From Eutypella sp. D-1 (taxonomy: Eukaryota; Ascomycota; Sordariomycetes; Xylariales; Diatrypaceae), in NCBI GenBank assembly GCA_023313575.1, contig JAJTTP010000001.1:1364001-1428000 (forward strand): 64,000 bases of DNA. The letters are read 5' to 3'. The notes beneath the pieces were generated by a model. It saw nothing but the letters and a program-made list of their open reading frames with translations, was not told the DNA's origin and did not search any database. The position numbers and the translations under genes are program-made. Shown here in pieces: positions 24,450 to 45,189 of this stretch. Numbering within the stretch: the first letter of the stretch is position 1; every line of letters starts with the position of its first letter.

Positions 24450-27026
24450 ATGATCCCATCCCAGTCTGCGCGAGTTAGAGTTCCTAGGAGAACCCCACGG
24501 GCGTAAGTACTTTTGACATTTATAAGGCAGGTCGATCCAAAGCTGACAAAGTGATAACTAACGCTTCCAGCTGCCGGCAGTGCAGAGCAGCTAAAGTCCG
24601 ATGCTCTGGGATTCTTCCTTGTTCTAGATGTTCTCGACGCCGAGACGATTGTGTCTTTCCGGAAGATGATCCTAAAGTCGCCGTGTCAGAGAAGTGACTA
24701 GCCCTACCCCTAACCCCAACTCATGGCGTAAGAAAGTACTTACGAAATATAATCTAAATAACGTAGATATTTATTGGAGCTCGAGCGTAGGGCTAGCCAA
24801 GCAGAACTACCTACGGAGAGAGCGAGTTCTACTATGCTCGATATTTCTTCAGAGCCAACCAACGATAATGATTGTCGAACCGAGGTAGCCTCTAGCGCCG
24901 ATGTTGACTGGGATTCCTCTTCAACCCTGATCAGATCACCAAATAGCCATCCCCCTCAGATCTTCTTAAGTGAAAAAGGGGGTAATATCCATCCAAGTTT
25001 CTATAGTTATATAACAGTAACTAAATGTGGCCTTAGATCACAATGCATCTGCTATCGACCGTAGATCGAGTGAGGTCTTCACCTGCAACCCCCTCGTCCA
25101 AGACTCGCCCTGGATCAGGGATCCTCACGGCCGATATCGTATGGGTTACTTCTTGCTATCACCATTGTAACTTGAATGCAAAGCTTACGTTATCATAGGT
25201 TACATGGGCCCAACATCCACATGGTCATTTTTCCGCCATGTCGTTTCGCTAGTAGAACGGCGCCATCCCATCTTTCCTGGCACGCCATTTGAGCCTTTAA
25301 ACACGGACGGGACCGCGTTTCGCCTCAGATGGAGCGCGCTTCCCGCGGATCAAATTCCCGAGATTGGCGATTTACCGCCGCCCGACCACGCCATGTATCT
25401 TTTCCACACAGTCCAGTTCCACCTAGGACAGCTGTTTCCAACCATACACGAGCCAGTATTTCTCCACCGTCTCAACCAGTTCGAGACTGACCCGCTAGGG
25501 GTTTGTCGGACGCAGAGGCTCTGGCTCGCCCAATACCTCCTAGTCCTGGCTTTTGGCGAGGCCTTCCTGTCCCGAGACGCGCAAGCTCCTGCACCTGTCG
25601 GCAGTGCTTTCGCCGCGCGCGCTATGGCCTTACTACCTGATGTTACGCAGTTCCACGACGAAGGGCTGTTAGCAATCGAAGTTCTAGCCATGGCGGCGTT
25701 ATATTTCCATTCCATTGATATGAGAGTCTCCGCTTTCCAATATGTAAGTCTAGCCCCTCATGAGTATCCTATCGCAAAGTATACGCCCCTTATTACTTTA
25801 GCCAGATCGGCCAGGCTCTTCGCCTTTGCTATGTAGAAGGTCTACACCGGGAGATTCACGAGGATCATGGCACAGAACTTTCTCACCATTGTCGAAACCT
25901 GTGGTGGACTGTGTACATACTCGACAGACAGCTATCCTCGCTGATGGGCGCCCCAAGTTCCATTCGAGATGAGGATATCACCATGGCTCTACCCTCGGTG
26001 AAAGACACTAGCATCGCCGCCACCGCGACCACGTTGACTATCAAACTGTCTCGCCTCTTAGCTCAGATTACAACCAGTAAGCTACTGAGCTGTTTCTAAC
26101 TATCGAGCCTTTGCTGATTGTTTCCAGCTGTCTACGGTGTTAATACAAAGCTGGGCGGCTCCTTCGTGAAGAACACCAAGATCATCATCAAAAGTCTTGC
26201 TGAGGTGGCACAAGAGATCGAAAGCACGGTACTCACCCGTACAGTCACCGCCTACCCCTCTCGCGTCGTGAGCGCAGTCACGTTGATGTACCACCACTGT
26301 ATCATCCAAGCCACGAGGCCGCTGGTCATGTGCCTGCTAAAGGGTTTCCTCAGCCCAACAACGACAACAGCTATAGAATCTACCCAGCATCAGCAGCAGC
26401 ACTCGGAAGTGACCTGGGTATCACCGCCAATCGTGGCACTTTTGAAGACGTCCGTGTCTTCGGCCCTAATGACTCTGAAGCTCCTGTGCCGCCTCCGCGA
26501 GCACAGACTTCTCGGTAAGTCATGCCCCACGCAGGACCCACTGGAGAATTATCAAGATGACAAGTCCTCACATCACACACACGAGAAAGAACCGTTCCTC
26601 CCCTTCGATCTGGAGTACGCCTTCTCGGCGGCCACGCTGCTGTGCATCGTGCAGACGGTCCTACCTGGTTTCATCGAAGACGCCGCAGCGTGGCGCGGCG
26701 CAACTGACTCCTTGCTCGACATCATGGCTAAGCAGGGGAGCGTGGCCGCGGGGCTTCGCCAGTCCGAATGGAGCTACCTGCAACAGCCCCTGGCGGCCCT
26801 ATGTCCGTCGGGCCCAGTCAGTGAAGTAGACGGCGGGATCCAATGCCCTGTGGCCGTAGCAGCCAACGGAGATCCGCTTACTGAGGACGACGTACATGGG
26901 TGCCCGGGTCTCTGGAGCGCAGAATTTGAGGCGGACAGCATGATGAGCGCTGGCCCTGATCACCTATTTGACCTAGTAGCTCAGCTCGGGGCAGATTCGG
27001 AGATTGATATTATTGGAAATCTGTAA
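24450..27026 (+). CDS. Zn(II)2Cys6 fungal transcription factor with Fungal_trans domain (regulator 2)
   Basis: Seven exons: 24450-24502, 24571-24693, 24767-24981, 25037-25138, 25199-25743, 25806-26076 and 26128-27026. All phases agree and give 735 aa. The zinc cluster is spread over exons 1-2: C19-x2-C22-x6-C29-x5-C35-x2-C38-x6-C45. It is followed by the usual VSEKYLLELERR coiled segment. Then come CNPLVQDSPWIRDPHGRYRYMGPTS, typical of this subfamily, and the Fungal_trans middle domain (LGQLFPTIHEPVFLHRL ... RLCYVEGLHREIHED ... WWTVYILDRQLSSLMGAPSSI). The donor of intron 2 is GTGACT, unusual but in phase. It acts in the nucleus. It sits between the SDR and the P5C reductase and is the best candidate for the cluster-specific regulator. 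A GTAAGT at 26515 was not used because the frame stays open. Confidence 0.9.
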
Positions 27027-27435: not shown

Positions 27436-28404
27436 TCACGATGAAGACATTTGCTTTGATCTTTCCGCCGCTGCCAGGATGGCACTCGTGAAGCTCGACC
27501 GGACCCCTTGTTTCTCGAGCTCTAGTAGCGCGCGGATGGAGCAGCCACCGGGAGATGCGATCTGCTCCCGTAGGACACCCGGGTGAGCCCCCGCCTTGGG
27601 CACCAGCTGCATCATGCCGATGGCACTGTTGACCACCATGTCTGTTGCTTCGGTCCTCTTCACGCCTTCGGCTACGGCGGCGTCCAGCAGCCCATCGACG
27701 GCCAGCAAGAGCAGCGAGCCGGCGCAGCCCACCAGCACCGCGCAGATGTCGAATGTACGCTCGTCGGCAACCCGTTGCGCTGTACCGACCGCGCCAAAGA
27801 CCCACGCTGCCAGCCCCAGACTCGCCTCCGTCGTGCCTGGCGCGGCCGTGTATAGCGTGACAGCACTGCGGATACGGGCCGCCATGTTGGGCATCGCGCG
27901 GACGGCCTGCAGATCCTCCCCATCCTTTCCGTCACCGCCGAGGACCAGCCGGCGCAGCTCCGTGGTCGAGATGCCGGCCATGATGCTGAGGATTAGCTTT
28001 CCGCGCAAGGCGTCTCGAAACCCCGGGGCGCCGAAGACGTCGGCCCGCTTTGCGGGCTTTATGGCCAGCAACACTACATCTGCCTCTTGCACCACGTGAT
28101 TGTTGTCCTGCTGGAGCCGCACGGAGAGCCGCGACGCGTGTTGGGACAGGGCATCTTCCACTCGGCGCTTAGAGGGCTCAGTCCCAACCGTGGCCACGAT
28201 ACGCTTGATTCCGATGCTATCCCCGTTCGGAGCATCCAGGATGCCAGCGGCAATAGCAGTTCCGAGTGTTCCTGTCCGATGGGTGGTGCCATACGTTAAT
28301 GAGGGACTCCTTAGATTTGCGTCAGACGCTAAGAGTGTTAGGAGTGCATTGTATGTCTTACCACAGCCGATGACGGCTACTGTTAGCTCGGTTTTGGCTC
28401 CCAT
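27436..28404 (-). CDS. Pyrroline-5-carboxylate reductase (P5CR)
   Basis: Two exons, 28404-28362 and 28271-27436 (90-nt intron, GTAAGA ... GGACAG), give 292 aa. The splice builds the Rossmann motif VAVIGCGTLGTAIAAGIL. Further family marks are VVLLAIKPAKRADV, LILSIMAGI, VRAMPNMAARI and the C-terminal P5CR signature LREQIASPGGCSIRALLELE. Known reaction: reduction of delta-1-pyrroline-5-carboxylate to proline with NAD(P)H, the last step of proline synthesis, cytosolic in yeast (Pro3). Its place beside PRODH, P5CDH and a permease suggests a cluster-specific paralogue; the housekeeping copy should lie elsewhere. Two copies of the shared promoter motif lie about 160 and 200 bp upstream. Confidence 0.93.
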   Translation of the reverse strand: MGAKTELTVAVIGCGKTYNALLTLLASDANLRSPSLTYGTTHRTGTLGTAIAAGILDAPNGDSIGIKRIVATVGTEPSKRRVEDALSQHASRLSVRLQQDNNHVVQEADVVLLAIKPAKRADVFGAPGFRDALRGKLILSIMAGISTTELRRLVLGGDGKDGEDLQAVRAMPNMAARIRSAVTLYTAAPGTTEASLGLAAWVFGAVGTAQRVADERTFDICAVLVGCAGSLLLLAVDGLLDAAVAEGVKRTEATDMVVNSAIGMMQLVPKAGAHPGVLREQIASPGGCSIRALLELEKQGVRSSFTSAILAAAERSKQMSSS

Positions 28405-28910
28405 AATGGCGATTTCGTCTGCTTCACGTCGCTAACGCTGGAAAATATGACGACCAATGCTTTGGAGACCGCCGGGGTATTTTATCATAAATGCTATTAG
28501 ATCACCTTATAATGAAACCTCTACGTCATGTCTTTCTGTAATTCTGACCATGTGTGGCGTCATCGGCCCGAGATAACTAGGAGCGAGCTTGATGCTTTAT
28601 ATCTCGGCCCGATCCCATATACCGGCATCACCCGTTATGGCATACATCCAAAGAAACACTCATATTAGTGAGTTTCTACTTCTGCATCCGTTATCGATTC
28701 ATGCTTCCAAGTTTAGATGGTTATTGGTGGCCCGCGCCCAGCACACAGGCGGCGTTTCATCCTCTGGCGCATTAGAGCCGACTCCAAGCTGGACACGCAA
28801 ACGATACGACAATGTACTTAAAGCAAGAAAGCACTTCATACTATTATGTAATATCTATTCGGATAATATTGGATGCTATCTGTCCAATAATAGTCACATG
28901 GTTATTTCTA
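28405..28910. promoter_or_regulatory. P5C reductase promoter with two inverted CGG-N-CCG motifs
   Basis: CGGCCCGAGAT at 28564-28574 and ATCTCGGCCCG at 28601-28611 are the same 11-bp word in opposite orientations, 26 bp apart. They lie upstream of the P5CR gene (-). The cupin gene's 3' end is on the other side, so the sites most plausibly serve P5CR. Confidence 0.6.
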
Positions 28911-29612
28911 TTAGAGCTTGCTAGTATAGGTTATGCCGTTAGTAGAAGGGGCAATGCCATTTTCACGCCATGCTGTATAGAGTCCCTGCGGTAACTTGCC
29001 AAACACAGGATCCAGTTCGGGCTTAGGAACCGCCCAAGCTTTCCCGTACTCTCCCCCCCTCTTCACAAAATCCCAATCGCCGCCGCTGTACGCCCCCATC
29101 ATCGTGTAACCGGAAAGCTGGATATCGGCCAACACCTCTTTGATATCTCTCCCCCCCGTTTCGATGCCATGCCCAGTGCCGGGCGTGAGGAGCTGGAACT
29201 TGGCTTCGGGCTTAGTGTTGTACGTCTTATGGGCGATGCCCGCGGGAATCACGAAGACGTCGCCGGCCTCGGCCGTGAGTTCGATGCCACCGTCCTCCCA
29301 AGCTTGCCCGTAGGTGTTGGCGTCGAGGTCTTCGGACGTATCGGCCACGCCAAACCGGATGGTTGCGGTGCCCGAAAGCACCGCCATGCACTCGTGCGCT
29401 TGAGAGTGGTAGTGCGAAAACTGCGTCGGACCATATCGGAAGATCCATGAAACCCTCCACCTGTTGCCGTGGAACATGTTCCAGACCTCGGCAGGGTCGC
29501 AGCGCTGATTGTCCGGGCTTCGGGGTAGGACATCTTTGTAATGAAGCAGGGGTCGGGGGGAATTAGGGATGAGGTCCGTGGGGAATAGATGGTACTTCCT
29601 AACTTCAACCAT
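28911..29612 (-). CDS. Cupin-domain protein
   Basis: Single exon, 233 aa from the ATG giving MVEVRKYHLF (an in-frame upstream extension exists but is not needed). Cupin motif 1 is HYHSQAHECMAVLSGTATI with H67, H69 and E74 as metal ligands. Motif 2 is GDVFVIPAGIAHK. This is a small single-domain cupin of the kind common in fungal metabolic clusters; members act as metal-dependent dioxygenases, isomerases or binding proteins, so the reaction cannot be named. It is divergent from the Baeyer-Villiger monooxygenase gene (716 bp between starts), which suggests co-regulation. Confidence 0.85.
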   Translation of the reverse strand: MVEVRKYHLFPTDLIPNSPRPLLHYKDVLPRSPDNQRCDPAEVWNMFHGNRWRVSWIFRYGPTQFSHYHSQAHECMAVLSGTATIRFGVADTSEDLDANTYGQAWEDGGIELTAEAGDVFVIPAGIAHKTYNTKPEAKFQLLTPGTGHGIETGGRDIKEVLADIQLSGYTMMGAYSGGDWDFVKRGGEYGKAWAVPKPELDPVFGKLPQGLYTAWRENGIAPSTNGITYTSKL

Positions 29613-30328
29613 GGTCGCGAATGGTATCTTCAAAAGCGTTGGGTGTTGTAGATACGACGAGTATTCCTGTGATATAACTATGTGCTTAGTGTTAATGAAC
29701 TGTCGGATTCGGATTCCGAGATCCAAGCCCGGTGGATCATGTGTCCACTATTATAGTTCTGCCCGAGAAGATAACAAACAGTAGTGCGTTGACAGACAAC
29801 GGCACGGTTAACAAACAATGGTGCGGTTAAGAAATAATAGTACAGTGATATGTAACTTACAGTGGAGGTTGCCGCGACTATTCAGCACCTGGTGCTTATT
29901 AGAGATTCTCCTCACAAATGATCTAGAAGTCTCTTCAAACCGCGGTCTTCGCTCCTTCAGCCCGACTTACTAAGTCAAACTTATCCTTGTCATAGTAGTC
30001 TTCTAATCACGAAGGAACATGATACTCGGTCTGAGTTTCCGGCCTCGATATTGCAGGAGTAATGCTATCTCGGGCCTTGAAATCTCGCGGAGCGTAAGAT
30101 CAAGTCACATGGTACTGTGGAAGCTGTTAGAGATAACCGTATACTTCATGATTCGTTCATGCTTCCCCTCAGAAAGGCTAGGCAAAGGAATAGGAAAGCG
30201 ACCCTGACTATCGTCAGGAATAGTAGATATAGAACGAAGATAAAAGGGATTGAAATTTGAATGTATTGCGATCTACCGTCTTAATCACATTCATCACCTC
30301 CCATTGTCTGGACAAAAAACTTGAAAAG
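29613..30328. promoter_or_regulatory. Bidirectional promoter, cupin/Baeyer-Villiger monooxygenase
   Basis: It contains ATCTCGGGCCT at 30067-30077, one base off the shared ATCTCGGNCCG word, and CTCGGTCTGAG at about 30026-30035, a near-palindromic one-mismatch relative of the CTCGGTCCGAG site before P5CDH. No gene. Confidence 0.45.
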
Positions 30329-32321
30329 ATGGCCTCAATTCTTGATCTTGGACACCCTCCGGCCTCAAGGGCACGCCTAATCAGTGATCGAGCTATCGAT
30401 GCCGTGAGACCCCTTAGAGTGATCTATATCGGAGCTGGGATCTCTGGGATAATTGCGGCGATCATCTTCCGTGAAATGGTCCCCTCGCTAGACTTGGTGA
30501 TTTACGAGAAAAATCCAGAATTGGGAGGCACTTGGTACGAAAACAGGTATTGTCATCTTCTATGTATAGGCCGGTATAGAATTCTTCAGCTAATGTATGA
30601 CTAGATATCCAGGTTGCGCATGTGGTAGGTTATGGGCAGCCATATTATTTTGGTGTAGGACCTGCGGACTAAACCGACAATCTAATTGTAGATATTCCAT
30701 CTCACTCCTATCAGTTGACATTCGAGTCGTCAACTGACTGGAGCTCCTTTTACGCGTCTGCCCCAGAGATCTTGAATTATTGGATGAGAGTGGCGGACAA
30801 GTACGACGTTCGAAAACACATCCTCTTCCAACACAAGTGTGTCGAAGCATCTTGGGATGAGTCAAGCCTGAAATGGAAGGTCAAGCTTTTAAGAACCAAT
30901 GCCGACACTTCGACTATCGTGAATGACGAGGCCGACGTACTAATTACAGGCACCGGGCTCCTTAACGAGTGGAAATGGCCATCTATACAAGGCATGCAGA
31001 GCTTTAAGGGGGAACTGCTCCATACAGCAAACTGGGACGAGGGATTTGACCCAACTGTAAACAATGAATATCCTCGTCTAAAATATGATGGGAACTGCTA
31101 ACAGCTATCTAGGGCAAAAGCGTTGCGGTAATCGGAGCAGGGAGCAGTGGTATCCAAGTGGTTCCTGCAATCGTCGACAAAGTCCGGTCGATGGACCACT
31201 ACGTCCGTGGGAAAACCTGGATCGCCAACCAGCTCAGCGAGAAATTGGTGAAGGAGCGAGCAGGGAACGATAGCTCATCTAACTTTCAGTACAGTGAGGT
31301 AGAAAAGGAGTTCTGGAAACTGAACCCGGAAGCCTACGTGAGGTACCGGAAGACGCTGGAGTTCGGGCTGCAGGGCAACTATAAGGTGACCCACCGCGAG
31401 AACCCGCAGCACAACGTTGCTCGCACCCAGTACGAAAACACTATGAGGAAGCGCCTAGCCGCAAAACCAGAGCTGGCCGATCTCCTTATCCCCGACTTCC
31501 CGCCACTTTGCAAGAGGCTGACGCCGGGGCCCGGCTACCTGGAGGCCCTAACAGCCCCCCACGTCAATGTCATCCCGGAGAAGATAACCCACATCAACAC
31601 CGAGGGCATCGTGACAGCCGACGGGGTGAGCCGGCCCGTTGACTCCATCATATGTGCGACCGGGTTCGAGACGGCGCCCGGCACCGGGTTTCCCATCTAC
31701 GGTCGGGATGGAGTCAATCTGCGTCACAAATACGCCGCACGCCCGCGGAGCTACCTGTCAGTATGCACCGACGGCTTTCCCAACTTCTTCCAGTCACTGG
31801 GTCCAAATTCATTCCAGGGTTCTGGCAGTCTTCTGATGCCGATGGAGCAAGTTCACCGCTACATGGGCCAGATCCTACGGCGGCTAGCGTGCGGCAACGT
31901 GAGGACAGTCGAGCCAAAGCGCCGAGCAGTAAATCTATTCACCGACTACTGTGATCAGTACTTCCACCGGACCGTATACACGACCGACTGCGTCAGTTGG
32001 TACAAGGCAGCTCCCCCAGGCGCCTCGCCGGATGAGGCGAAGAGGGCGCGGGTCACAGCACTGTGGCCCGGCAGCAGCGTCCACTGCATGAAAGCGCTCG
32101 AGTTTGTTAGGTGGGAGGACTACGAGATCGAGTCCCTAGACGGCAACGAATTTGGATGGTTTGGCAACGGGTACACGGTGGGCGACCAAGATCCCGACCC
32201 TGCCAACTCTGAGCCACTTACCTGGTATCTCAACAACACTGGCTTCTTACACGAGAGTCTTGATGCGGGGCCAGAGAAGGAAATGTTGAAATCGGACGGT
32301 GACAGTGGCGTATGGGAATAG
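30329..32321 (+). CDS. Flavin-dependent (Baeyer-Villiger type) monooxygenase
   Basis: Four exons, 30329-30546, 30605-30624, 30692-31056 and 31113-32321, give 603 aa. Exon 2 is only 20 nt, but it supplies the conserved RYPGCACD segment. Motifs: FAD-binding GAGISG (35-40), the Baeyer-Villiger fingerprint FKGELLHTANW (184-194), and the NADPH-binding GAGSSG (209-214). Length is normal for the class. Reaction: NADPH and O2-dependent conversion of a ketone to an ester or lactone, or N/S-oxidation of a soft heteroatom; the substrate is unknown. It shares a promoter region with the cupin. It is a probable tailoring enzyme of the cluster. An in-frame upstream ATG at 30257 is an alternative start. Confidence 0.92.
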
Positions 32322-32758
32322 AACAGCTCCATAGTCTCTTGCCGATTGATATAATTGATTATATGTCAATTGAACTTTTCCGTTTAAGGTTGTGGTAAAT
32401 GCAAGTTAACCTAGTGTTATGCGATATACTCTCGAATTGTAAACATAATATATTTCCTCTGATATTTTGGTAGTTCTTCATTATATATCGGCTTTATCAT
32501 GAGCTAATACATTAAAAGCGAACCGAAAGGCAACTGGGGAAAACCTCGTTGTGACGGATAGATATAATAGAAATCACTGTGTGACGATTCACATACAATG
32601 GCGCATATACAAGCACTAGTATCTGCCATGGAAAACAGAATTGAGCATAATCAAGAATGGGCTAATTCCAAAACACATGTATGCAGTAGTCATATGGCAT
32701 GATTTAGTTAAACGGACCTATGATACATGACTCATGGAATAAAGAGAATTTAAACCTC
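32322..32758. other. Convergent 3' intergenic region
   Basis: AT-rich sequence between the 3' ends of the monooxygenase (+) and the permease (-). No gene seen. Confidence 0.45.
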
Positions 32759-34258
32759 CTAGGAGTTGTCGCCGCAAGAAAAGACGCCCCTTACGGCCCC
32801 ACTGTGATAAGACTGCTGAATACTGAGGACAGACCCATAAGTACCTCCAACGATGATGAATGCACCTGACAGAATCAGAAAACACGCAAGAGCTAGCGCC
32901 ATAGCGTTCTTCCACCCCTTTTGGTAAGCCTTGAAGGCGCCGATGAGCCAGAGTTGCTCATTCGCATATTGTTCCGAAACCGGTCGCAGTGGGACTCCGT
33001 CTCTGGCTTCCGCCGGTCTCCGGGCAATATAGAACATGATCATGAAGCCTGGAAGGACATTGGTGAATATGGGATTCACGAGCGCCCCGACCAGGCTCAA
33101 GAAATCACTAAAGAAAGGCACGACGCCGACAACAATAAAGCCGAAGATGACTGTCACCGCCATAGACCCGACCCAAATGGTCCAGTGTTTGACAGTGCTG
33201 GACTGTAGGTGGCGCGTGCCGCGGAGGATGCGCACGAACCAGTACTTGGCCGCAATGTGACTGTACAGAACGGCCGTCATAACCAGCCCGGGTAGTGCAA
33301 TGCCGTACGAAATCTTCTTGATAAGGGGCCCTGCTGATCCCAGTGCCGGGCTTGCCAGGTACTGGCCGATCTTTCCGTAGACGATAGAGCCGATGGCGAT
33401 GCAGGTCAGTACCATGAAGGATTGACCAACCAACAGGGCGCGGGTGAATTTATCGGGGTGCCGCATCTCTGCTGCGACGGAGAAGAAGGTGCCCGACGCT
33501 CCGACAGCAAAGAGTTGGTTCGAGATGGCCGCCATGGCCTGAGCGAAGGTGGAGTGAGGTAAAATACGGATGTCGAGGTCGACGGGCCCGGGTGGAGCCG
33601 CCGCAGGACGGTCCTGAGCGAGGCATGCGATGGTGGTGACCCAAATGGCGATGACTATACCGGCCACGCCGACCCAGCTGAGCCATGCGACACGCTCCAG
33701 CGACCGGAACCCAGTGCCAATAACAAAGGCGACAGCGGACGACACGGCGACGAAGATAGTAGTGCAAGCACCATGGTCAGAGAGAGCGTTGAGCGCGACC
33801 GACGTAGTCAGCATACCTGCACCTGCCGTCATAGCCAGATAAATGTAGTAGACGCCGCCGACGAACTCGCGCGCGCCCGGGCCGAAGAGCAGCGCTGCCG
33901 CGTCGCCGATGCTGTGTAGGTGTGGGTAGTAGCGGCGGGCATTTCCGCAGACATAACCGGCGACGGTGGATACGGCGGTGATAATAAGGAAGCAAAGGAT
34001 CCCTGGGACGAAACCCAGCACATGGAAGGTATGAGGGATGCTGAGGGTGCCGAGCCCGATCTGGAACTTGGCGATCAGGATTGCGGCCGCTGGCCATGAG
34101 ACGCCGCGGAAGTCTACGTCGCCCTGCTCGCTGTTGAACACGTCGGCAGGTGCCTCTATGGTGGTTCCCACGGTGTGGGACTCAAAAGGCCGCAGATCAT
34201 TGTCACCGTCGTTGAGTACGGCTGTGTCCTCCTTGCTTTCTTCACCCGGTGTCTTCAT
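32759..34258 (-). CDS. Amino-acid permease, Aa_trans (AAAP) family, mtr-like
   Basis: Single exon, 499 aa from MKTPGEESKE (the open frame extends upstream through a TA repeat with no family-like sequence, so the internal ATG is chosen). It has about 11 hydrophobic membrane segments. The first follows the family motif GVSWPAAAILIAKFQIGLGTLSIP, typical of the Neurospora mtr neutral/aromatic amino-acid permease group; the C-terminus ends GVFSCGDNS. It is a plasma-membrane proton-coupled uptake protein for neutral or aromatic amino acids. In the prn clusters of Aspergillus the proline permease is of the APC family, so this is a different transporter class. It shares a 936-bp promoter region with PRODH, where two cluster motifs lie. 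It may supply the amino-acid precursor or substrate. Confidence 0.9.
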   Translation of the reverse strand: MKTPGEESKEDTAVLNDGDNDLRPFESHTVGTTIEAPADVFNSEQGDVDFRGVSWPAAAILIAKFQIGLGTLSIPHTFHVLGFVPGILCFLIITAVSTVAGYVCGNARRYYPHLHSIGDAAALLFGPGAREFVGGVYYIYLAMTAGAGMLTTSVALNALSDHGACTTIFVAVSSAVAFVIGTGFRSLERVAWLSWVGVAGIVIAIWVTTIACLAQDRPAAAPPGPVDLDIRILPHSTFAQAMAAISNQLFAVGASGTFFSVAAEMRHPDKFTRALLVGQSFMVLTCIAIGSIVYGKIGQYLASPALGSAGPLIKKISYGIALPGLVMTAVLYSHIAAKYWFVRILRGTRHLQSSTVKHWTIWVGSMAVTVIFGFIVVGVVPFFSDFLSLVGALVNPIFTNVLPGFMIMFYIARRPAEARDGVPLRPVSEQYANEQLWLIGAFKAYQKGWKNAMALALACFLILSGAFIIVGGTYGSVLSIQQSYHSGAVRGVFSCGDNS

Positions 34259-35194
34259 TATGGCAAAATTTACTGGAGTAGATTGGAATGGGGGACTGGC
34301 TGTCTTAAACCCTAAGAAGCAATATGGTTGGTAGACATGAGGGTTTCGACAGTATATATATATATATATATAGCCTTTTATCTCTCCCAACTCCTATTTG
34401 TCTTTCAGCTTATATATCTGGCAAGTCCCCCAACCGACTAGCGCCCCTTTCCCCAGATTTTACCCCGGATACAAGGCAGAGAGAGCTTCACAGGGGCATG
34501 CGTAATTTTCCGCTGATCTATCTGGGATTATGTTTGCTGTTCGGTCACTGAAGTGGCGTTAGCCAATTCCTGGGGGCTGACGATAACCCTCGTCGTTGTC
34601 ATAGAGCAATGTAGCCCCTGGATCTTACCCCACCCTACTTCCCCAGGTGATAACTTAGCTCCCACTCAACATCAAGTTTCTACTCATGTACTTAGTAACA
34701 GCGAAACGTTATTATCTATAAATGGGCTTAGATAGGTTGACGGGTATTGGCACTGAAGTCAAACTCGAGACTCTTGCCCAAGTTTGGAGGCGTCGGACCG
34801 AGATGGGCTCCACTTAACCGACCAAAGGGTCCCGCCCGGCCCGAGAACTGAATAGGGGTCTAGCCATGCCGCAGTTCCGAACCAGCATTGACCATTCAGT
34901 TCCAGTGCCTGTAAGTCTATCTAGACTGGGATTGTAGTGTTTTGGTAGGCTTCTCGGTGGCATTTATCACGACCTTTAATATCACCCACACAAACTTGAC
35001 CAACCACCAAACAGGCGATTCTTCATTTTCGTAGCAAGTAGACGCTATATCCGAGATATTCACGGCTTACACTTATCAGCGGAAGGCGACCTAAGGCTAT
35101 AGAGATAGTTTACATATGTAGCCCGCCTATCTTAAACTTTGCGTTCGTCCACTCGCACTAATAGTCTTGCCTCCACATTTCCGGTGCTTGAAAC
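34259..35194. promoter_or_regulatory. Bidirectional promoter, permease/PRODH
   Basis: 936 bp between divergent starts. It holds CGGACCGAGAT at 34794-34804 and CGGCCCGAGAA at 34837-34847, both copies of the cluster word (reverse orientation, second with one mismatch), 360-400 bp from the PRODH start. A (TA)10 tract at 34353-34372 lies about 95 bp from the permease start. Confidence 0.55.
34353..34372. repeat. (TA)10 dinucleotide repeat
   Basis: Perfect TA dinucleotide run in the 5' leader or proximal promoter of the permease gene. Confidence 0.85.
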
Positions 35195-37116
35195 ATGCTG
35201 CCTTCCTTAGCTGCCCGGCAGCGTATATTATTAACGGCTCGACGGTCCCTTCTCGTGCGCAACCCCCGGCTTCTCCAATCAACGACGACCTCAGCATCAT
35301 CTACAGGCAGTTTGAAAGGTGCTGCTGCTTTCAACAAGAGGAGAACATTGTACACACTAGGCGGTTTAAGTCTGTCCGCTATTGGTTTGTTATGGAGGCG
35401 GGGAAACGAGGCTGAGTATCGTGACGATCCGCGCGACGTGAAAGCTTTGTCGATGGTCCCTTTCGGTAAACTCTTTTCCGGGTGGATGTAAGTATATACT
35501 CGTAGCAGGAGAAAAGCCCTGCCTATCTTTACTATTTGGGGCTGTCTATTCCATCATGGTTACCTACTCACAGTTGTTTACTCCCAGAGCTTTTGCCTTT
35601 TGCTCCTCTCCCACTTGGGTGGATGCAAGCGAGTCCTCGTACAACATACTCTCCAAGATCCCTGTAATATCCTCTATCGTCCACTTCGTCGTCATGGGGA
35701 CCTTCTTCAACCAGTTCCTGGGCGGAGAGACTACTGCCGAGTGCATCCCAAAGATAGAGGCGCTGCATGCGCAGCAGATCGCGACGCTGCTCGGTTACAA
35801 CATCGAGGCTAATCTTGATGGCTCGAGCAAGGACCCGGCGTTGATCCGCGAGCAGATACGACACGTGCTGGCTTCAATTGAGGCCCAGGGCGAGCTGGCC
35901 CGGAAGCTCTGGCCCGACGCCAGCGCCACCAGTGGCGACAACCGGTTCTGGGTTCGTATTAAGATGACAGGCCTGCTTCCCCATCCCGTCGCTTTGTACC
36001 GGGGCTCGGCCGCCATTCTCCAAGCGAGGGAGGAGAGGGGACTGGACAAGGACATCCCGTACCCCGGCCTGCCCCATGACGGCGACTGGGAAGCTGCGCT
36101 CCATGGCAAGGGCGTTACGGATGAGGACCGCCAGCAGCTGCGCGGTTTGCGGGCCACGCTAGAGATTATAGCGAGCAAGGCACGGGACCACAACGTACGC
36201 ATCGTTATCGACGCTGAGCAGTCGTGGTATCAGCCCGTCATTGACAGTCTGACCGACGAGCTCATGAGGAAGTACAACGCCCTGGATGGCGACGGACCCG
36301 CGACTTGCATTGCTTCGTTCCAGGCCTACCTGCGCCGCTACCCGCAGCTGCTAGAACAGCAGATCCGGCGCGCCGACGAGAAGGGCTATAAACTCCTCTT
36401 CAAACAGGTCCGAGGTGCTTACATGGCGACTGAGGCCGATCGGTGGTTTAGGGAAGGGCGCGAGGGGGAGGGGCCGGTTTGGTCCACCAAGGCGGAGACA
36501 GACGCCAGCTATAACTTTGGCGTCGAGAAGACGCTAGCTACCGTTTCCAGGCAGCTGCAGGAGACAGGCCACTCCCGGATCGGCGCCGTGTTTGCGACAC
36601 ATAATGCGGTCAGCATTGATCTCGCCATTAGACTCATAGAGCAGTACCAGCTGGCTAGGCGAGATGAAAGCGAGGATAAACTTATAGTACCAAACGAAGT
36701 TGCGAGTAGCATTGCGTTTGCGCAGCTGTATGGTGAGTTTGCTCGTTGGGTCAAATCCGGGAAATTATGCTGATGTACCACTGCTAACACTCTCTGCTTG
36801 TAATAACAAGGTATGAAAGACGACCTCACCAACAGGATTACTGGAACGCTTGAAAGTAAGGGCAGGTTCCCGCTTGTTGTTAAGGTGAGTGAGAGATTCC
36901 ACCACTCTAGCTCTCAGGGGCAACTTCCCCTAAGTCAACCGTTTTAACCAAGCACCACAGTCAATGAGTTATGGGGACTTGAAAGAGTGTCTACCATTTC
37001 TGGCTAGGCGAGCCGCCGAGAATAAAGCTGTGTTAGAAGGAAGGGGCGGAGCTGTTGCCGAGAGGATAAGGTTGGGTCGCGAAATTCGGAGGCGTCTCCT
37101 ACCCATCAGCTCATGA
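35195..37116 (+). CDS. Proline dehydrogenase (proline oxidase), mitochondrial
   Basis: Four exons, 35195-35487, 35588-36732, 36811-36884 and 36961-37116, in consistent phase give 555 aa. The N-terminus is an Arg/Ser-rich, acid-free mitochondrial presequence (MLPSLAARQRILLTARRSLL). The TIM-barrel PRODH motifs follow: IDAEQSWYQPVID, ASFQAYLRRYPQLLEQQI, LFKQVRGAYM, FATHNAVSIDLAI, and the C-terminal SMSYGDLKECLPFLARRAAEN with the conserved RRR helix. Reaction: FAD-dependent oxidation of L-proline to P5C, passing electrons to the respiratory chain. It is the equivalent of Aspergillus prnD and yeast Put1. It neighbours P5CDH in the same orientation. As P5CR is also in the cluster, both directions of the proline/P5C cycle are encoded here. 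Confidence 0.94.
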
Positions 37117-37707
37117 GTAACCATGCCGAGGCAGCTTCTGGTATAACCATATCGTTGAGATACGGAACCCATTAAACCTTACATAGAAATTCACCCCAGA
37201 GTACCGATAAAGCCTAAGCCGGAGGCCTACAGACAAAGGAGTTGTCATTTAATTGTGTGCCCGGCGCAGCAGCCGGTGAAACGAGGGTCCTGATGGATGT
37301 CGCATGTGTACCGATGATCTATCGTCTAAACGCCCCGGAACGGGTTAAATAATTGGGGTCTGCATAAGCAAAGTCGGTAATGTCCTCTGTCTCTAATGAT
37401 CTCGGGCCGGCGAGCTAGACGGATGGAGGTGCCCTTAGCAGCTATCTTAGTTCCGATTACTAGTTATTAGATCAGCCGACGATGAGAGGCTCTTTGTTTA
37501 TGCGACGAAATAGATGCTACTATCCTGCAGTGGTTAAAGGCTTGGTATTCCTCGGTCCGAGGATGATGTTAACCAGGTTGGATAATGGGGCCATGCTGGT
37601 GATTATCTATGTACATACGACCAGCGTTATCCAGCCTCGCTGCGTTTTCCATTGACCTCAGCATTCGTCTCACTATCACATGAGTATTTATCTTATCGAG
37701 CATGATC
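37117..37707 (+). promoter_or_regulatory. P5CDH promoter with two CGG-N-CCG sites
   Basis: ATCTCGGGCCG at 37399-37409 is an exact copy of the cluster word. The perfect palindrome CCTCGGTCCGAGG is at 37550-37562. They lie about 305 and 155 bp upstream of the start codon. Confidence 0.6.
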
Positions 37708-39476
37708 ATGGCCGGCACTATTCTATACCCAGAACCTGCTAATGCCGAAGGGGTAGGTATCCCTCCCGTTTCATCATAAGCATCCTGTGAAAGTGTATCA
37801 GCCCTGACTAACCTTACCCGAGTTCTCAGTTCCCATACGAACCCGGCTCGCAGGAGCGAAAACTCTTGATCGCTGCTCTTGCGGAGATGGAGAGCGTCAC
37901 CGCCGATATCCCAAGCATCATTAACGGCGAGCGCATTTACAACGGCCGGAAGAGGACTCAGGGCAACCCTTGGAAGAGATACGGCATCCCGCTAGCGGAG
38001 TATTACGAAGTAGAAAAGGAAACCATCGAGCAAAATGCCATTCCCGGTACCCTTGCGGCGCGGAAGAAGTGGGCCAACCTGCCGTTCCGGGAACGGGCGG
38101 CCGTCTACAAGCGCGCGGCTCAGCTCGTGGCGTCGCCCCGGTGGCGGTGGAGACTCATGGCAGCGACCATGATCGGGCAGGGTAAGACATGTGGGCAGGC
38201 TGAGGGCGACTGCATCGCCGAGGTGATTGACACCCTGAATTTTCACGTCTACCTCTGTTACCAGCTCTACCAGCAGCAGCCGTCAAAACAGTCCGATGCG
38301 GAGTCCAACTTCCTCGACTACAGGCCGCTCGAGGGCTTCCTCCTAGCCATTTCGCCTTTCAACTTCACCGCCCTGGGCGCGCACATCGCCTTCACCCCTG
38401 CTATACTTGGTAACGTTGTGCTCTGGAAGCCATCACCGATGGCTGTGCTGTCAAACTACATTCTGTACGAGATCATGGAAGAGGCAGGACTACCCGCGGG
38501 CGTTATCCAGTTTCTCCCTGCGGCGGATCCTGACGTTGTGGTTGAGCCCGCCCTCGCAAGCCGACACTTTGCCGGTCTCCACTACACAGGTTCCTCCGCC
38601 GTTCTGCGGAGCCTGTGGGCGCGTATCGGTGCCAACACACCCATCTACAAGACCTTCCCACGTGTAGTCGGGGAGAGCGGCGGAAAGAACTTCCACCTAG
38701 TGCACAACTCCTGCTGCAGGGACGGCGATGCCGACTGGCTGGCATCGGCGGCTGTGCGCTCTGCCTATGAATTCCAGGGCCAGAAATGCAGCGCCTTGTC
38801 CCGCTTCTTCGTGCCCCAGTCCATGTGGGACAAGGGCGACCTAAAGACGGCGCTTGTGCGAGAAGCCGCTAAGATGACGCATGGCGACGACGTCAAGCAG
38901 ATTCACCACCCCCTGGGCCCCTTGGTATCCCAGGCTTCATTCGAACGCTTCGTCGGGTTCGTTAAACGTGCCCAGAACGACGGTCACCGACTGATCTACG
39001 GTGGCGAGGTGGGCGGCGGCGACGGATTCTTCGTCCAGCAGGCCATCTTCGAGGTCAATCAAGCTGCCAATGGAAACGACCCAGCAGAGTCAGAGCTGAT
39101 GACCAAGGAGCTATTTGGGCCCCTGCTCGCAGTGCAAACGTACGACGATGTCTCACCCACGGGGTTCCAGGACGTGTGCGACCTCATCGATGGTACGACT
39201 GAGTATGGACTTGCGGGTTCTGTTTTCGCACGCGACCGGGAGGCAGTGCGGCTCGCAGACGCGCGACTACGGGACTCGGTTGGCATGTTCTGTATCAATG
39301 ACAAGAGCACGGGGGCCGTCATCGGCGCTCACCCTTTCGGGGGTGCGCGTTCCAGCGGCACCAATGACAAGGCCAACTCCATCAACGTGCTCTTGCGCTT
39401 CTCAAGCATTCGCTGCATCAAAGACTCCTACGTGACCCGGAGCAGTACACTGAGCGCTTTCCACATCCCCGAATGA
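37708..39476 (+). CDS. Delta-1-pyrroline-5-carboxylate dehydrogenase (P5CDH, ALDH4 family)
   Basis: Two exons, 37708-37752 and 37830-39476 (77-nt intron, GTAGGT ... TCTCAG), give 563 aa (an in-frame ATG at 37702 would add two residues). Family marks: SPFNFTALG, LWKPSPMAVLSN, the catalytic Glu in VVGESGGKN (E297) and the catalytic Cys in GQKCSALSR (C335), FGPLLAVQTYDD, and HPFGGARSSGTNDKANS. Reaction: NAD-dependent oxidation of glutamate semialdehyde/P5C to glutamate, the step after PRODH (Aspergillus prnC, yeast Put2). Known fungal enzymes are mitochondrial, but this N-terminus (MAGTILYPEPANAEG) has no Arg-rich presequence, so location is uncertain. It probably works with the adjacent PRODH. 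Confidence 0.94.
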
Positions 39477-39874: not shown

Positions 39875-42084
39875 TCAGTCAAAGTGTATTCTCCATAACT
39901 CGCGGTCGCACCCAGCCGTGAAGTCGCTCCGGGTGTGCATGGCCAGAATATTATCACTGACCAGCAGATCACCCTTCTCCCACGCGTGGTAGTAAACCAC
40001 GCGGCGATCGTATAGGAGACCATCGAGGGTTTCGCATATCGCTTTCCCATCCCGTCCAAGGGCAAGGTCAAGTCCAAGCCCAGGCCCCTCATTAACGTCG
40101 TCGTCGGTGTCATCAGCGTTCTCGATCTCTACTAGTGTCTGCTCGAACTTGGTCTTACTCTGCGGCCAAGGCTCGTGATACCGGAGGCACGGCTGGCCTG
40201 TGGTCGGGTGATCCGTCACTAACGGCAGGCCTCGCAGCACCGTTGCGTTGAACGACGAAGTCGACACACTCCAGGTCAGGCCTCGGAGGTAGTCTAGAGA
40301 CAGGTGATGCGGCAGATGCTTGAATACCTGTGTCGAGCTTGAGAAAAGAGTGAACCCTGTATCCTTGGGTGATGTTGTTACGGCCGCAAACAATTGAAAC
40401 CTGGGCAAGGGTTAGGTCAAAGACCATAGTAAGCTTACGTAAGATAGGGGTGGTGAAAGATAATAGGTTTGGGTGAGGGAGGGGGGGATATACTTCGGGG
40501 GAGTTGACACCAGCCTCTCGACTCCATCATCACCTGTTTGTTTCTCAGTCTTGAACAAGCCATCGTAGTGGAACGGCATCCACTCGGCCGAAAGCACGTT
40601 GTTAAGTCCGCGTGTGTCTGTGCCGCGATCCTTGACCTCAAGCACCAAGCCGAACTTCCACGGCAACGGCTTGCCGAACTGGTCCGCTTTACCGACGAAT
40701 TTATCTCGATCAGTGCAGCCCCGGAACCCACGCAACACTACAGGGGAGTTCCGCTCCGCAAGTGCCCGCACCTTGGCCGCCTCTATATCCTCGATGGACA
40801 AAGCACCCTTGCCCGCCGCTGGGTGGATGAGGAGGCCTGCTGGATACAGCGGCTCGCTTACGATGCCCCCACTCTTTTCCGTGTCCCACATGAGAAGGTC
40901 GGTTTTCTCGCGGTAGTAGCTCGGACGGCCATCCTCATAGACCAGCTCGAGTTCCGGGTTGGAGTCGAACTCGGATCGCGGACCCGTCGTTGTAGTCCCG
41001 TCTAGCCGGAAGGCGATGCTACAGTGCCATGGTGTGGTGAAAATTGTGTCTGTTGGCAGTAGGTTGACGGACAATTTGTTCTCGCCTGTCGAGGGGTGGA
41101 TAGAGAGGCGCAACCGGTCGCGGAACTTCTCGCGGACGGCTCGGGCGAAGGCCTGGGTGGGTGTTAGCTCGTTGTACATCCGCAGAAAAAGAATATATCA
41201 CTGACATCGCCCCTATTAAGCATCTGCTTCGCGATGTACTCCACGCCCCTCTTATACTTAGACTTGCTGCGAGCCTCACCGACAGGGTAGACATCTTGGA
41301 GGTCGGTGGCGAGGAACTTAATGTAACCACGATAGGTCAGGCAGGTGTCCTCGTCCTCAGAGATCTTGAGCGCGGCATTGTACTCGGGTCGACTGAAGTG
41401 GCGCAACAGTGCAAGCCGGAAGTTAGTCGCGTTAGCTACATAGGTGATCTCATCCAGTTCGTCTGGCACGTCGATGTGCACCAGGTCCTTCAGCCGGGAG
41501 AACTCGATATGGTGGAACCCCTTCTGCGCACTCAGAGCCCGCAATGCCTCGCCGTACGCCCAAACCTCCTTGTCCGGTACGCTAAGTAGGTCTTAAGACA
41601 AACGTTATGGTGTCAGCTTCGTAATCAGGACAGGTACAGGAGAAAAGTAAGAAATTGACGGTACAATACCATTATACACCAGGCCATCTGAGATGATCAT
41701 TAATTTGGCTCCCGGGGGGTATATATCCTTGATCGCGGCACACAGGCCGTTGAGGTGGGCCAGCGCGAACTCCTCCGCTTTGTCGGGTAGACGCCCCAGC
41801 ACCTTCGTACTTGTGTTGGGAGACTTAAAGGGGAACGCGGGCAGGCACATGAGGATCGGCTGGCCGGCGGCTACTTTAGTATAGACCTGGGCGAGGAAGC
41901 CGAAAGTACCATGAGCGGATTTGGTGGTCGACGCATCCCGATGGAGTCGATACCTGGCGATGACGTCTAGGATTCGGGACGCCAGCTGGAGACCTGAGGG
42001 GTCCAGGTTCCCAAGGCGCGTCGCGGCAGAAGGGGAATTTGACTTATGTGTCTCTTCTGAGACTGTATAGATTGCGGACGGCAT
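39875..42084 (-). CDS. Isocyanide synthase-TauD dioxygenase fusion (DIT1/PvcA + TauD/TfdA)
   Basis: Four exons, 42084-41670, 41591-41206, 41152-40494 and 40400-39875, phases 1/0/2, give 661 aa. The ATG at 42084 is used; the frame's earlier start is TTG. Residues about 15-340 match the DIT1/PvcA isocyanide synthase family: SDG at 132-134 followed by VYNDLL, AKQMLNRGDAFARAV, and RLSIHP at 282-287. Residues about 370-661 match TauD/TfdA Fe(II)/2-oxoglutarate dioxygenases: HYD (H462, D464), SPKDTGFTLFSS, distal H642 and Arg653/657. Known chemistry: the synthase condenses an amino acid's amine with ribulose-5-phosphate carbon to give an isonitrile; PvcB-type dioxygenases then oxidise it, often with decarboxylation. 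The intron 2 donor is GTCAGT. No canonical cluster motif lies upstream. This is the likely backbone gene; the amino acid used is unknown. Confidence 0.93.
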
Positions 42085-43285
42085 CGTGAGCAAATTTCTT
42101 CTCTTTTTTTATCTCTGTATCGGTATGGCAGTCTCTGATGCAACCGGGGGACTTGGCTTTGAGATCAGATGTTACCCAACAATTCCCAGTGTACCCGTAG
42201 CACCGGTTGAATGGGTTTTGGTGGTAGATAAGAGAGTTCTGGAATTATTCCGTCGCTGTCTCCTTTGTCACCGGTCCTGCAGTGTCGGTCGTAGTCAATG
42301 CAGTTATCAAATAGCAGAACGAGTGAAAGTTCAACCCGGTGTTCCACGGTGGTATATGAGTTAAATCCACCACAAACTGCCGAACGATTTCCCTCCCCCT
42401 TGCCCCTCCTCCATTTCGGCCGTTCACATACACGACCGTCGGGTCACCACTCAAGGCCAAGGTAACGTGAGAACAAACTCTGCGACACCCGGGCGGCCGA
42501 GGACGGGGTCTACCTACGCATAAGGAAGCTGGATCCACACGGAGGGTTAGTTCACAACTGACGATTCTAGGTCACATACACCCACTCTTTTTCACTTATT
42601 GATGCCGTGCTATTGTTTTCCGGTGGCGTTGAGCGGCTAAATCTTGATCTTCCTCTTTCTGACCCCTGTCTCAAAATCCTCCGTCACCTAACAAAAGTGG
42701 AAAGTCAATATACTCGGCGCCAGTGGGGAAGCTGGGTTTATGTGCCATACGCCCGTGGCAACATACAATCCGGCCAGAGCACCTACAATCGAGCAAGAAC
42801 ACATGAAATTCGTTTCGCCTGCCTGACCTGGTTCTTAGTTGAGGTTACACTATATGCCAGGGAAGGCGAAATGCTTCCTAATTGGGTTCGATTTCCTAGT
42901 TTGACGTGATACGCGGTCATCGGCGGCCCCGGCCGGCCACGGCGGTCTAGCCAACTACTGGACCGATAGTTCGGAGGCTTTTAGCTCCCCTATAACTCGT
43001 GGGTGAGGTCCGTTTGCTATCGAGCGATCATCAGTCGACTCCGTTAATGCGCAATTTTCGTGTTACAAATCAATGTGTTTCCCTTAACCTCGATCTCGTA
43101 TAATCTCCAGCCCCTACGCTGAAATAGTTCGCGCCAAGATTCAGTCAACTCCTCATTCAATTCTTAGAAGTTGCTTGTTCGGGGCAGGGCAGTCACTTAT
43201 CTACACGTGTAATACTGCTGCTCGATCGAACTTACGCCGCAAGCCTTTCACCACAAATCGTTACTCGTAACCTCCAGTTGTCACC
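42085..43285. promoter_or_regulatory. 1.2-kb bidirectional promoter, isocyanide synthase/FAD monooxygenase
   Basis: The space between two divergent starts. I looked for ATCTCGGNCCG and found no exact copy. The closest are GTCACCGGTCCTG near 42270 and GGCGGCCGAGGAC near 42495 (no spacer), plus a GC-rich CGGCCCCGGCCGGCC run near 42925. No gene recognised; an open frame at 42607-42909 has no domain. Confidence 0.4.
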
Positions 43286-45189
43286 ATGGGCAAGTACCTT
43301 CACGGCTCAGAGGCCGAACAGCAGGAATTCGATTTGGCAATTATAGGCGGTTAGTCTTCGGATCACGGCATGTGCCCCTCACTTTTTGATTGCCTCACTG
43401 ACACACTCCTTTAGGCGGGCCGACCGGTCTTCTATCAGCCGCCTTAGCAGAAAAGCTCGGGCTGTCAGTGTGTGTCTTTGGTACAACAACCACTTCTTGG
43501 TAGCACTGTGTAGGGTCACTTGCTCACGGCGATACAGATGCAAAGCCAGGTCCCCTTGAGCTGGGACGGGCAGACGCCTTGAATGCCCGAACGCAACAGT
43601 ATTTTGAAATCGTGGGGATCCTCGACGAACTTTTGCCTAAAGGCCTTAAATGCAACAGTAGGATATTAACAGAAACCCCCCCAACTTGGAAGGCATTACG
43701 TAGCGGACATCTAATAGGCTGCAGCAAGCTCGACGTTTGCCGATGGCGATTTCAAGTCTCGCCAAAGCCATTGGTGGACGAGTCTCGAGCACTGCCTGCA
43801 CCGCAATTTCTTAATGATTGGCCAGCCTGAAGTCGAGAAGGTCATACTCAGCCGCCTCAACACCCCGGTTTGGTTCGGCGAGCAGGTCGTCTCCATTTCG
43901 GAGACTGATACCGGTGTATCAGTGACTTCGGACCGCAGCCGGACGGTTCGGGCTAAGTACGCCATCGCCGCCGACGGGGCGCGGTCGACCATCCGGAATG
44001 CGCTGAACATCGACTTTGCCGGCACTAAACCCGAGATGGTCTGGGCAGTCCTCGACACATTCATTGACACCGACTTCCCGGTCTGCTCGGAGATCATTAC
44101 CTTCCAACTCAGAGGCCAATCACGCGTCGCATGGATTCCCAGGGAACGGGGGATGGCGCGGTTCTACGTTCTCCTTGAAGAGGGGCCAATCACGCAAGAC
44201 AGGGCAGAGAGTTCGCTTCGAGAGCACCTCGCTCCCTATAAGATTGACTTTGTGAAGACAGAGTGGTTCAGCACGTTTGAAGGTACGTTCATATTGCTAC
44301 TGGCCACCATAGCAATGGCTATCGAAAGTAGTAAAAACTGACGTCATGGGTCTTCTCATAGTCAAAGAGAGAATCGCGTCGACATTTGTGTCAAAGCAAG
44401 GAACTGGTCGGATTATTCTAGCCGGGGATGCAGCACACGTACACTCCGTCAATGGTGGACAGGGACTGAATACAGGGATTGCCGATGCCTTTGCTCTGAC
44501 GTGGCGGATAGTGACGGCTATCAAGAGTACGTCCTTGACTCCAGATGGAGCGCTGAAGCTCATCCGCAGCTACGACACGGAACGCCGCAAGGTTGCACAG
44601 GAGGTCATCGATGTCGCTGCAAGGCTGGTGAGAGACACGATACACACTGCTAAGCAGTACGTTGCGACGATTGAGAAGAACGCCGCATACATTACCGGTA
44701 AGAGAGAAAGCATCCTTCGTTCTCCACCTGATCAAACACTCGTCAGGTCTAACGTTGCACGACATAGGAATGGGTGTATCATATGACGGGCTCGGTTCTG
44801 AGCTCATCTCAGAGTCCGAAAGGGGTATCTGGAAAGCTGGCAAACGGTGTCCAGACATCTACCTCAGTCAACCTGGAAGTGATACAATGCGACTGTACTC
44901 GATGCTGTCATATGGAAAGTTTGTGGTCCTTGCCATAGGGGGGCCACAGGGCTGCCACGGTCACTTCACGGACGTATGCACACATCTCACGCTCCTTCCC
45001 GACGCCTCTAGGGAAAAGCACGCAAACGGTTACTCTAAAGAGGCTCCCGCGGAGGAAAAGATCTTCTCGTCCGACGTCGTTACCAACGACCAAACCTTTG
45101 TGGTTGTGGTCCGCCCGGACATGTATATTGGGTATATCGGTGACGGTGAGGGATGGAAGGAGTACTTAGCAAGCGTTTTCATGCATTAA
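43286..45189 (+). CDS. FAD-dependent aromatic-type monooxygenase (phenol hydroxylase/PheA-TfdB family)
   Basis: Six exons, 43286-43349, 43415-43480, 43538-43657, 43725-44282, 44362-44697 and 44747-45189, in consistent phase give 528 aa. The FAD_binding_3 fold is clear: IIGGGPTGLLSA (residues 19-30), VFDAKPGPLELGRADALNARTQQYFE, the AADGARSTIRNAL motif, and GRIILAGDAAHVHSVNGGQGLN. A C-terminal thioredoxin-like lobe follows (MLSYGKFVVLAIGGPQG ... VVVRPDMYIGYIGD), as in phenol hydroxylases. Reaction: NADPH/O2 hydroxylation, usually of a phenolic or other activated ring. An aromatic substrate would fit an isonitrile made from tyrosine or tryptophan, but that is inference. The first intron has a GTTAGT donor. 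It shares a promoter with the isocyanide synthase-TauD gene. Confidence 0.92.

What the first reader, a model, noticed from the sequence alone, without database searches (positions are those of the whole stretch)
39875..42084. Fused isocyanide synthase-TauD dioxygenase as a cluster backbone
One 661-aa protein joins a DIT1/PvcA isocyanide synthase to a 2-oxoglutarate dioxygenase with intact HxD...H ligands. In bacteria (PvcA/PvcB) these are separate proteins acting in sequence. The fusion predicts an isonitrile, perhaps vinyl isonitrile, made by a single polypeptide. Standard PKS/NRPS-centred cluster prediction can miss such genes.
Basis: partly seen in the sequence, partly recalled or inferred. 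Interest (0 to 1): 0.85.

Follow-up and report, generated by a model that had tools for sequence, protein, structure and literature searches.

The report
Known fungal isocyanide synthase-dioxygenase fusion
A fungal gene does encode one protein that should both make an isocyanide and reshape it, but such fusions are already known and common in fungi; the more useful lead is a neighbouring ring-oxidising enzyme gene that accompanies it in a number of related fungi.

Summary
DIT1_PvcA covers residues 67-336 (E 1.8e-99), TauD 387-658 (E 1.9e-22); iron ligands are H462/D464/H642. The novelty claim fails. The fusion is the published ICS-DOX / ICS-TauD type (A. fumigatus XanB, IcsB; 36.2% of fungal ICS proteins), a bacterial two-domain example is published, and all 120 listed relatives carry both domains. 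The addition is a divergently transcribed FAD aromatic hydroxylase gene (43286-45189): relatives lie on the same contig as the synthase for 41 of 120 listed synthases, and 13 organisms give consecutive locus tags, 10 of them among the 41. A proline dehydrogenase on the other side shows no such linkage in the listed rows. I read a two-gene cassette making a tyrosine vinyl isonitrile that is then ring-hydroxylated. No product was shown.

The parts
41670..42084 (-). ICS-TauD exon 1 (ATG at 42084)
   Evidence: reading frame and GT-AG junctions
41206..41591 (-). ICS-TauD exon 2
   Evidence: 53-nt intron 2 chosen because relatives lack the 5 residues of the alternative
40494..41152 (-). ICS-TauD exon 3: end of the DIT1_PvcA domain and start of the TauD domain, including H462, D464 and K468
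39875..40400 (-). ICS-TauD exon 4: rest of TauD, with H562, H642, R657 and the stop codon
42085..43285 (.). 1.2-kb region between the divergent ICS-TauD and FAD hydroxylase starts; one GAGCAAA 7-mer at 42088 (copper-type motif, recalled; 10 in the whole window counting both strands, so no evidence of function)
   Evidence: gene models; motif counts
43286..45189 (+). FAD-dependent aromatic hydroxylase (FAD_binding_3), 6 exons, 521 aa, GxGxxG / DGxRS / GDAxH motifs present; likely pathway partner
   Evidence: same contig, and in 13 organisms consecutive locus tags, with ICS-TauD relatives

Best explanation
A two-gene, divergently transcribed cassette. The 661-aa ICS-TauD first converts the amino group of an aromatic amino acid, most likely L-tyrosine, into an isonitrile, taking the carbon from ribulose-5-phosphate; the fused Fe/2OG domain then desaturates with decarboxylation to a vinyl isonitrile. 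The neighbouring FAD-dependent aromatic hydroxylase then most likely hydroxylates the phenol ring. Shown by computation: the fusion, the ligands, the vinyl-type residues, the intact partner gene, and its linkage in other fungi. Inferred: substrate, order of steps, ring hydroxylation and product.
For: Both domains far above Pfam cut-offs; best PDB relatives are isonitrile synthases and their Fe/2OG partners; predicted structure of the 77% relative matches PvcA/PIsnA and PIsnB/PvcB. Condensation of Tyr/Trp nitrogen with a ribulose-5-phosphate carbon is the established route (abstract of PMC7949033 in a listing). Selectivity positions: PIsnB K107 -> K468 and N188 -> H562, carboxylate-binding R265 -> R657 (PMC9467999 sections 7 and 12); the alignment of PvcB to relative P0001 shows Leu and Cys at the two positions. 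K468, H562 and R657 are conserved in 113, 119 and 117 of 120 relatives. FAD partner: 41 of 120 listed ICS rows share the same longest contig, by length and organism name, with a listed FAD row; 9 of these contigs are no longer than 107,649 bases. 13 organisms have consecutive tags, e.g. JX265_012885/012886, AK830_g6625/g6626, QQS21_008860/008861, 10 of them among the 41. Distances of the 41 pairs plus the window correlate at r = 0.885, 0 of 2000 permutations as high.
Against: No expression or metabolite data. The ICS part scores only 133 bits against the L-tyrosine isonitrile synthase equivalog (cut-off 600), so tyrosine is not established. The selectivity residues are correlative: single swaps in PIsnB-Ah did not change the product. 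Sharing a contig is not adjacency, and many of the 41 contigs are megabases long; only the tag pairs show neighbours. The distance correlation is also expected from shared species history. The comparison rests on the 120 best rows of each search. Some listed ICS proteins have no linked hydroxylase in the lists: Neonectria ditissima AK830_g7197 and Hirsutella minnesotensis HIM_11602 (second copies) have none listed, and Dactylonectria macrodidyma has its listed ICS and FAD proteins on different contigs.
Confidence: 0.6

Rival explanations
1. Same enzyme, different substrate: the ICS domain uses tryptophan, valine or another amino acid, so the product is not phenolic.
For: A fungal ICS, CrmA, makes a valine-derived isocyanide (start of the abstract of PMC9381783 in listings); the tyrosine equivalog cut-off is not reached.
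Against: A PIsnA entry among the closest solved relatives is a complex with L-tyrosine and PIsnB one with tyrosine isonitrile; the linked partner's relative resembles phenol and hydroxybenzoate hydroxylases, which fits a phenolic substrate, though its best PDB match is VibO and rifampin monooxygenases come next.
Confidence: 0.17
2. The TauD domain acts as PvcB does and gives an isocyanoacrylate, which the hydroxylase carries towards a coumarin-like product.
For: The bacterial pvc pathway ends in a dihydroxycoumarin isonitrile, paerucumarin (passages of PMC3639982); the selectivity residues alone do not decide the outcome.
Against: Both diagnostic positions are vinyl-type, and PIsnB is the closer match (1.2e-20 against 2e-16).
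Confidence: 0.12
3. The cluster is larger and takes in the adjacent proline-metabolism genes (P5C reductase, permease, proline dehydrogenase, P5C dehydrogenase).
For: They sit next to the ICS gene and the genome has other PRODH, P5CR and P5CDH matches; the window PRODH is only 32-34% identical to the two others over about 160 aligned residues.
Against: 0 of 120 PRODH rows share a contig length with the 120 ICS rows or the 120 FAD rows; in F. sarcochroum (FSARC_8414 against 3815), F. lateritium (ACHAPT_013501 and 013001 against 009029) and Conoideocrella luteorostrata (contig 66601 against 77109) the PRODH lies elsewhere. Most PRODH rows come from other species, so the control is weak, and only PRODH was searched.
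Confidence: 0.08
4. The two domains are separate genes wrongly joined.
For: Only that no transcript data were available.
Against: 120 of 120 listed relatives carry both Pfam domains in one protein; the domain border lies within exon 3.
Confidence: 0.02

Closest known systems
Fungal ICS-DOX / ICS-TauD proteins (A. fumigatus XanB, IcsB)
   Same: Same two domains in one protein; same class as described in PMC5974471 and the preprint PMC10153163.
   Different: XanB is proposed to work with the Dit2-like XanG, which would dimerise its product to xanthocillin; here the linked partner is an FAD hydroxylase, and no P450 appeared among the frames scanned. No XanB or IcsB sequence was compared here.
Bacterial PvcA/PvcB (paerucumarin) and PIsnA/PIsnB (rhabduscin)
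   Same: Same two catalytic steps expected; both domains are homologous; vinyl-type residues as in PIsnB.
   Different: Fused here; the bacterial downstream enzymes differ (PvcC as a flavin hydroxylase of another family is recalled, not tested).
Yeast Dit1/Dit2
   Same: DIT1_PvcA domain; dit1 and its partner gene are also divergently transcribed.
   Different: Dit1 is a single-domain ICS; Dit2 is a P450.
Class A flavin aromatic hydroxylases (phenol 2-monooxygenase, 3-hydroxybenzoate hydroxylase type)
   Same: The partner's family by Pfam (window protein) and by PDB and NCBIfam matches of the relative P0241; 'class A' is recalled.
   Different: Linked here to an isocyanide synthase.

Membership tests
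ICS-TauD (ICS-DOX) fungal isocyanide synthase | PF05141 domain | tested here: met
   E 1.8e-99, residues 67-336
ICS-TauD (ICS-DOX) fungal isocyanide synthase | PF02668 domain in the same protein | tested here: met
   E 1.9e-22, residues 387-658; domain border inside exon 3
ICS-TauD (ICS-DOX) fungal isocyanide synthase | Isocyanide product | not testable with these tools
   no metabolite data
Fe/2OG vinyl-isonitrile-forming (PIsnB-type) enzymes | HxD...H metal ligands | tested here: met
   H462, D464, H642
Fe/2OG vinyl-isonitrile-forming (PIsnB-type) enzymes | K/R at PIsnB 107 and N/H at PIsnB 188 | tested here: met
   K468 and H562; PvcB shows L and C
L-tyrosine isonitrile synthase (NF045653 equivalog) | Score above the curated cut-off | tested here: not met
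   133.2 bits against cut-off 600, so the tyrosine substrate is not filed as shown
xan (xanthocillin) cluster | P450 partner and other xan genes beside the ICS | tested here: not met
   No P450 among the 20 of 38 window frames of at least 180 aa that were given to Pfam; smaller exons and the other 18 frames were not all scanned
Conserved pair with FAD hydroxylase | Hydroxylase gene adjacent to ICS-TauD in other fungi | tested here: met
   13 consecutive tag pairs show adjacency; 41 of 120 ICS rows share a contig, 10 of the 13 being among them. Orientation elsewhere was not tested.
Nickles gene cluster family 6 | Domain content of that family | not testable with these tools
   The preprint text gives its wide distribution, but 'FAD', 'flavin', 'monooxygenase' and 'hydroxylase' do not occur in the main text; figures and supplements were not available

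The most novel reading that the evidence does not exclude
The ICS-TauD plus class A FAD hydroxylase pair is a widespread, minimal fungal pathway that arrived independently at the logic of bacterial paerucumarin-type synthesis (isonitrile, desaturation, ring hydroxylation) with a different flavoenzyme family, and whose product is a small catechol vinyl isonitrile able to bind copper or inhibit phenol-oxidising copper enzymes.
Probability: 0.3. Interest if true: 0.5.

Novelty: new member of a known kind. Interest (0 to 1): 0.3.

Why it matters
The fusion adds one more member to a well-described class. The useful part is the recurring neighbour: the pair shows up by consecutive locus tags in 12 organisms that I place in Sordariomycetes and in Emydomyces, which I place in Eurotiomycetes (classes recalled; tags), and it gives a concrete prediction for the product of a widespread orphan isocyanide gene. 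If right, two genes expressed together would be enough to make and identify it.

Tried and rejected
First splice choice for intron 2 (38 nt, 666 aa) was rejected by comparison with 120 relatives. The idea that the proline genes belong to an isocyanide pathway was tested with the PRODH search and contig comparison and not supported; the literature search for 'isocyanide synthase' with 'proline' gave 4 papers whose titles showed no such pathway (listing only). The copper-type 7-mer scan gave nothing beyond scattered copies. Placement against XanB/IcsB or a tree with them was not done because A. fumigatus XanB and IcsB were not among the listed hits. The journal version of the fungal ICS survey was not held. 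Search for fungal ICS with FAD hydroxylase: 'isocyanide synthase' + FAD + hydroxylase + fung gave 2 papers, reviews by their titles (listing); 'isocyanide synthase' from 2022 gave 35 (listing); 'ICS-TauD' gave 1 (listing). I saw no printed account of this gene pair in those listings and in the passages read, which do not cover figures, supplements or most subscription journals.

Papers: PMC10153163 (preprint) outline, sections 18, 20, 21, 31 and passages; PMC5974471 passages; PMC9467999 outline and sections 4, 7, 9, 12; PMC3639982, PMC11563359, PMC11457142, PMC13005658 passages; PMC9381783 and PMC7949033 start of abstract in listings only.

Full report
Observation. The window lies in a 48.5-Mb, 72-contig assembly; the closest ICS-TauD relatives are from Monosporascus (75-77% identity; Xylariales), so the fungus is probably in or near Xylariales. 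On the minus strand I rebuilt the gene from four exons (42084-41670, 41591-41206, 41152-40494, 40400-39875) with three GT-AG introns of 78, 53 and 93 nt, giving 661 aa. My own first choice for intron 2 added 5 residues that 99% of 120 relatives lack.

Domains and catalytic residues. Pfam gives DIT1_PvcA over 67-336 and TauD over 387-658, both well above cut-off. phmmer against the PDB finds PvcA, the PIsnA entries, PIsnB and PvcB (with the 666-aa model; alignments for the relative P0001). The Fe ligands map to H462, D464 and H642 (117, 118 and 118 of 120 relatives). A structure predicted for P0001, 77% identical to the window protein, with a 56-row alignment, has pTM 0.89 and its best PDB matches are PvcA/PIsnA and then PIsnB/PvcB.

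Chemistry. Kim et al. 2022 (PMC9467999, sections 7 and 12 read) report K/R at PIsnB 107 and N/H at 188 for vinyl-isonitrile enzymes against L and C in PvcB-type ones. The window protein has K468 and H562; the alignment of PvcB shows L and C. The same paper warns that single swaps did not change the product. The substrate is inferred: the tyrosine synthase equivalog cut-off is not reached (133 against 600 bits).

Not new as a fusion. Lim et al. 2018 (PMC5974471, passages) define three ICS architectures, one being the two-domain ICS-DOX in both bacteria (V. cholerae IsnAB) and fungi (IcsB, XanB), and say that all fungal PF02668-type dioxygenases exist as hybrids with ICSs. The preprint of Nickles et al. 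2023 (PMC10153163) counts ICS-TauD as 36.2% of fungal ICS proteins. All 120 listed relatives here have both domains (739 proteins passed the threshold among 7997 scored candidates, 120 were listed).

Neighbourhood. Upstream and divergent lies an intact FAD-dependent aromatic hydroxylase, 43286-45189, six exons, 521 aa, FAD_binding_3 E 9.2e-58; its relative P0241 is closest in the PDB to VibO, rifampin monooxygenases and 3-hydroxybenzoate and phenol hydroxylases. I searched its relatives (4816 passed, 120 listed) and compared the longest-contig lengths with those of the 120 ICS rows: 41 are shared, each time with the same organism name. Sharing a contig is not adjacency: many of these contigs are megabases long, and 9 of the 41 are no longer than 107,649 bases. 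Thirteen organisms have consecutive locus tags in the two lists (JX265, AK830, QQS21, HIM, FSARC, IL306, PRK78, F66182, ACJ41O, ACHAP8, PWT90, Fc.00g (numbered in tens), FVEN), ten of them among the 41. The shared-contig count is a lower bound, since each row stands for a cluster of proteins and only its longest contig is shown. Exceptions: AK830_g7197 and HIM_11602, second copies, have no listed partner, and Dactylonectria macrodidyma has its listed ICS and FAD proteins on different contigs. Distances of the 41 pairs plus the window correlate (r 0.885, 0 of 2000 permutations), as expected for co-inheritance but also from shared species history.

On the other side stand P5C dehydrogenase, proline dehydrogenase, an amino-acid permease, a flavin monooxygenase-like gene (one fragment just under its cut-off), a cupin and P5C reductase. 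The genome has further matches to PRODH (3 places in all), P5CR (3 places in all) and P5CDH. PRODH relatives share no contig length with ICS or FAD rows (0 of 120), though most come from other species, and the other neighbours were not searched in other fungi. I treat them as a separate, prn-like set.

Second ICS. The only other PF05141 gene found in the genome is on C17 (108887-109892). It aligns only to the synthase half (46-50% identity, query residues 33-350), so it looks monodomain, and lies beside fragments that look like an NRPS-like protein (read by eye; no family scan was run).

Verdict. It is a new member of a known kind with one worthwhile lead, the recurring FAD hydroxylase partner.

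Noticed in passing
window 27439-39473: A run of proline-metabolism genes (P5C reductase, permease, proline dehydrogenase, P5C dehydrogenase) with a cupin and a flavin monooxygenase-like gene; the PRODH is 32-34% identical to the genome's other two over about 160 aligned residues but 75-76% to proteins of Fusarium vanettenii, Pseudogymnoascus sp. and Aspergillus caelatus, with an unnamed 98% match.
   Followed up: partly
G000 C17:108887-109892 (L014): Second isocyanide synthase, apparently monodomain, beside what looks by eye like an NRPS-like gene and further on a P450-like and a PKS-like frame.
   Followed up: partly
relatives P0268, P0279, P0289, P0307, P0329, P0330, P0350: Seven FAD hydroxylase relatives of 883-933 aa list PF07690; the hydroxylase is N-terminal in all seven and MFS is C-terminal in the one scanned (P0268). 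True fusions or merged gene models; a transporter may often lie beside the pair.
   Followed up: partly
window 40058-40105 (protein residues about 586-601): About 16 residues in the TauD half that 94% or more of relatives lack; insertion or a small intron.
   Followed up: partly
window 19590-21953 and 25171-27023: A Zn2Cys6 transcription factor gene (Pfam) and a second stretch that looks TF-like by eye but whose two fragments gave no Pfam hit; relation to the cassette unknown.
   Followed up: no
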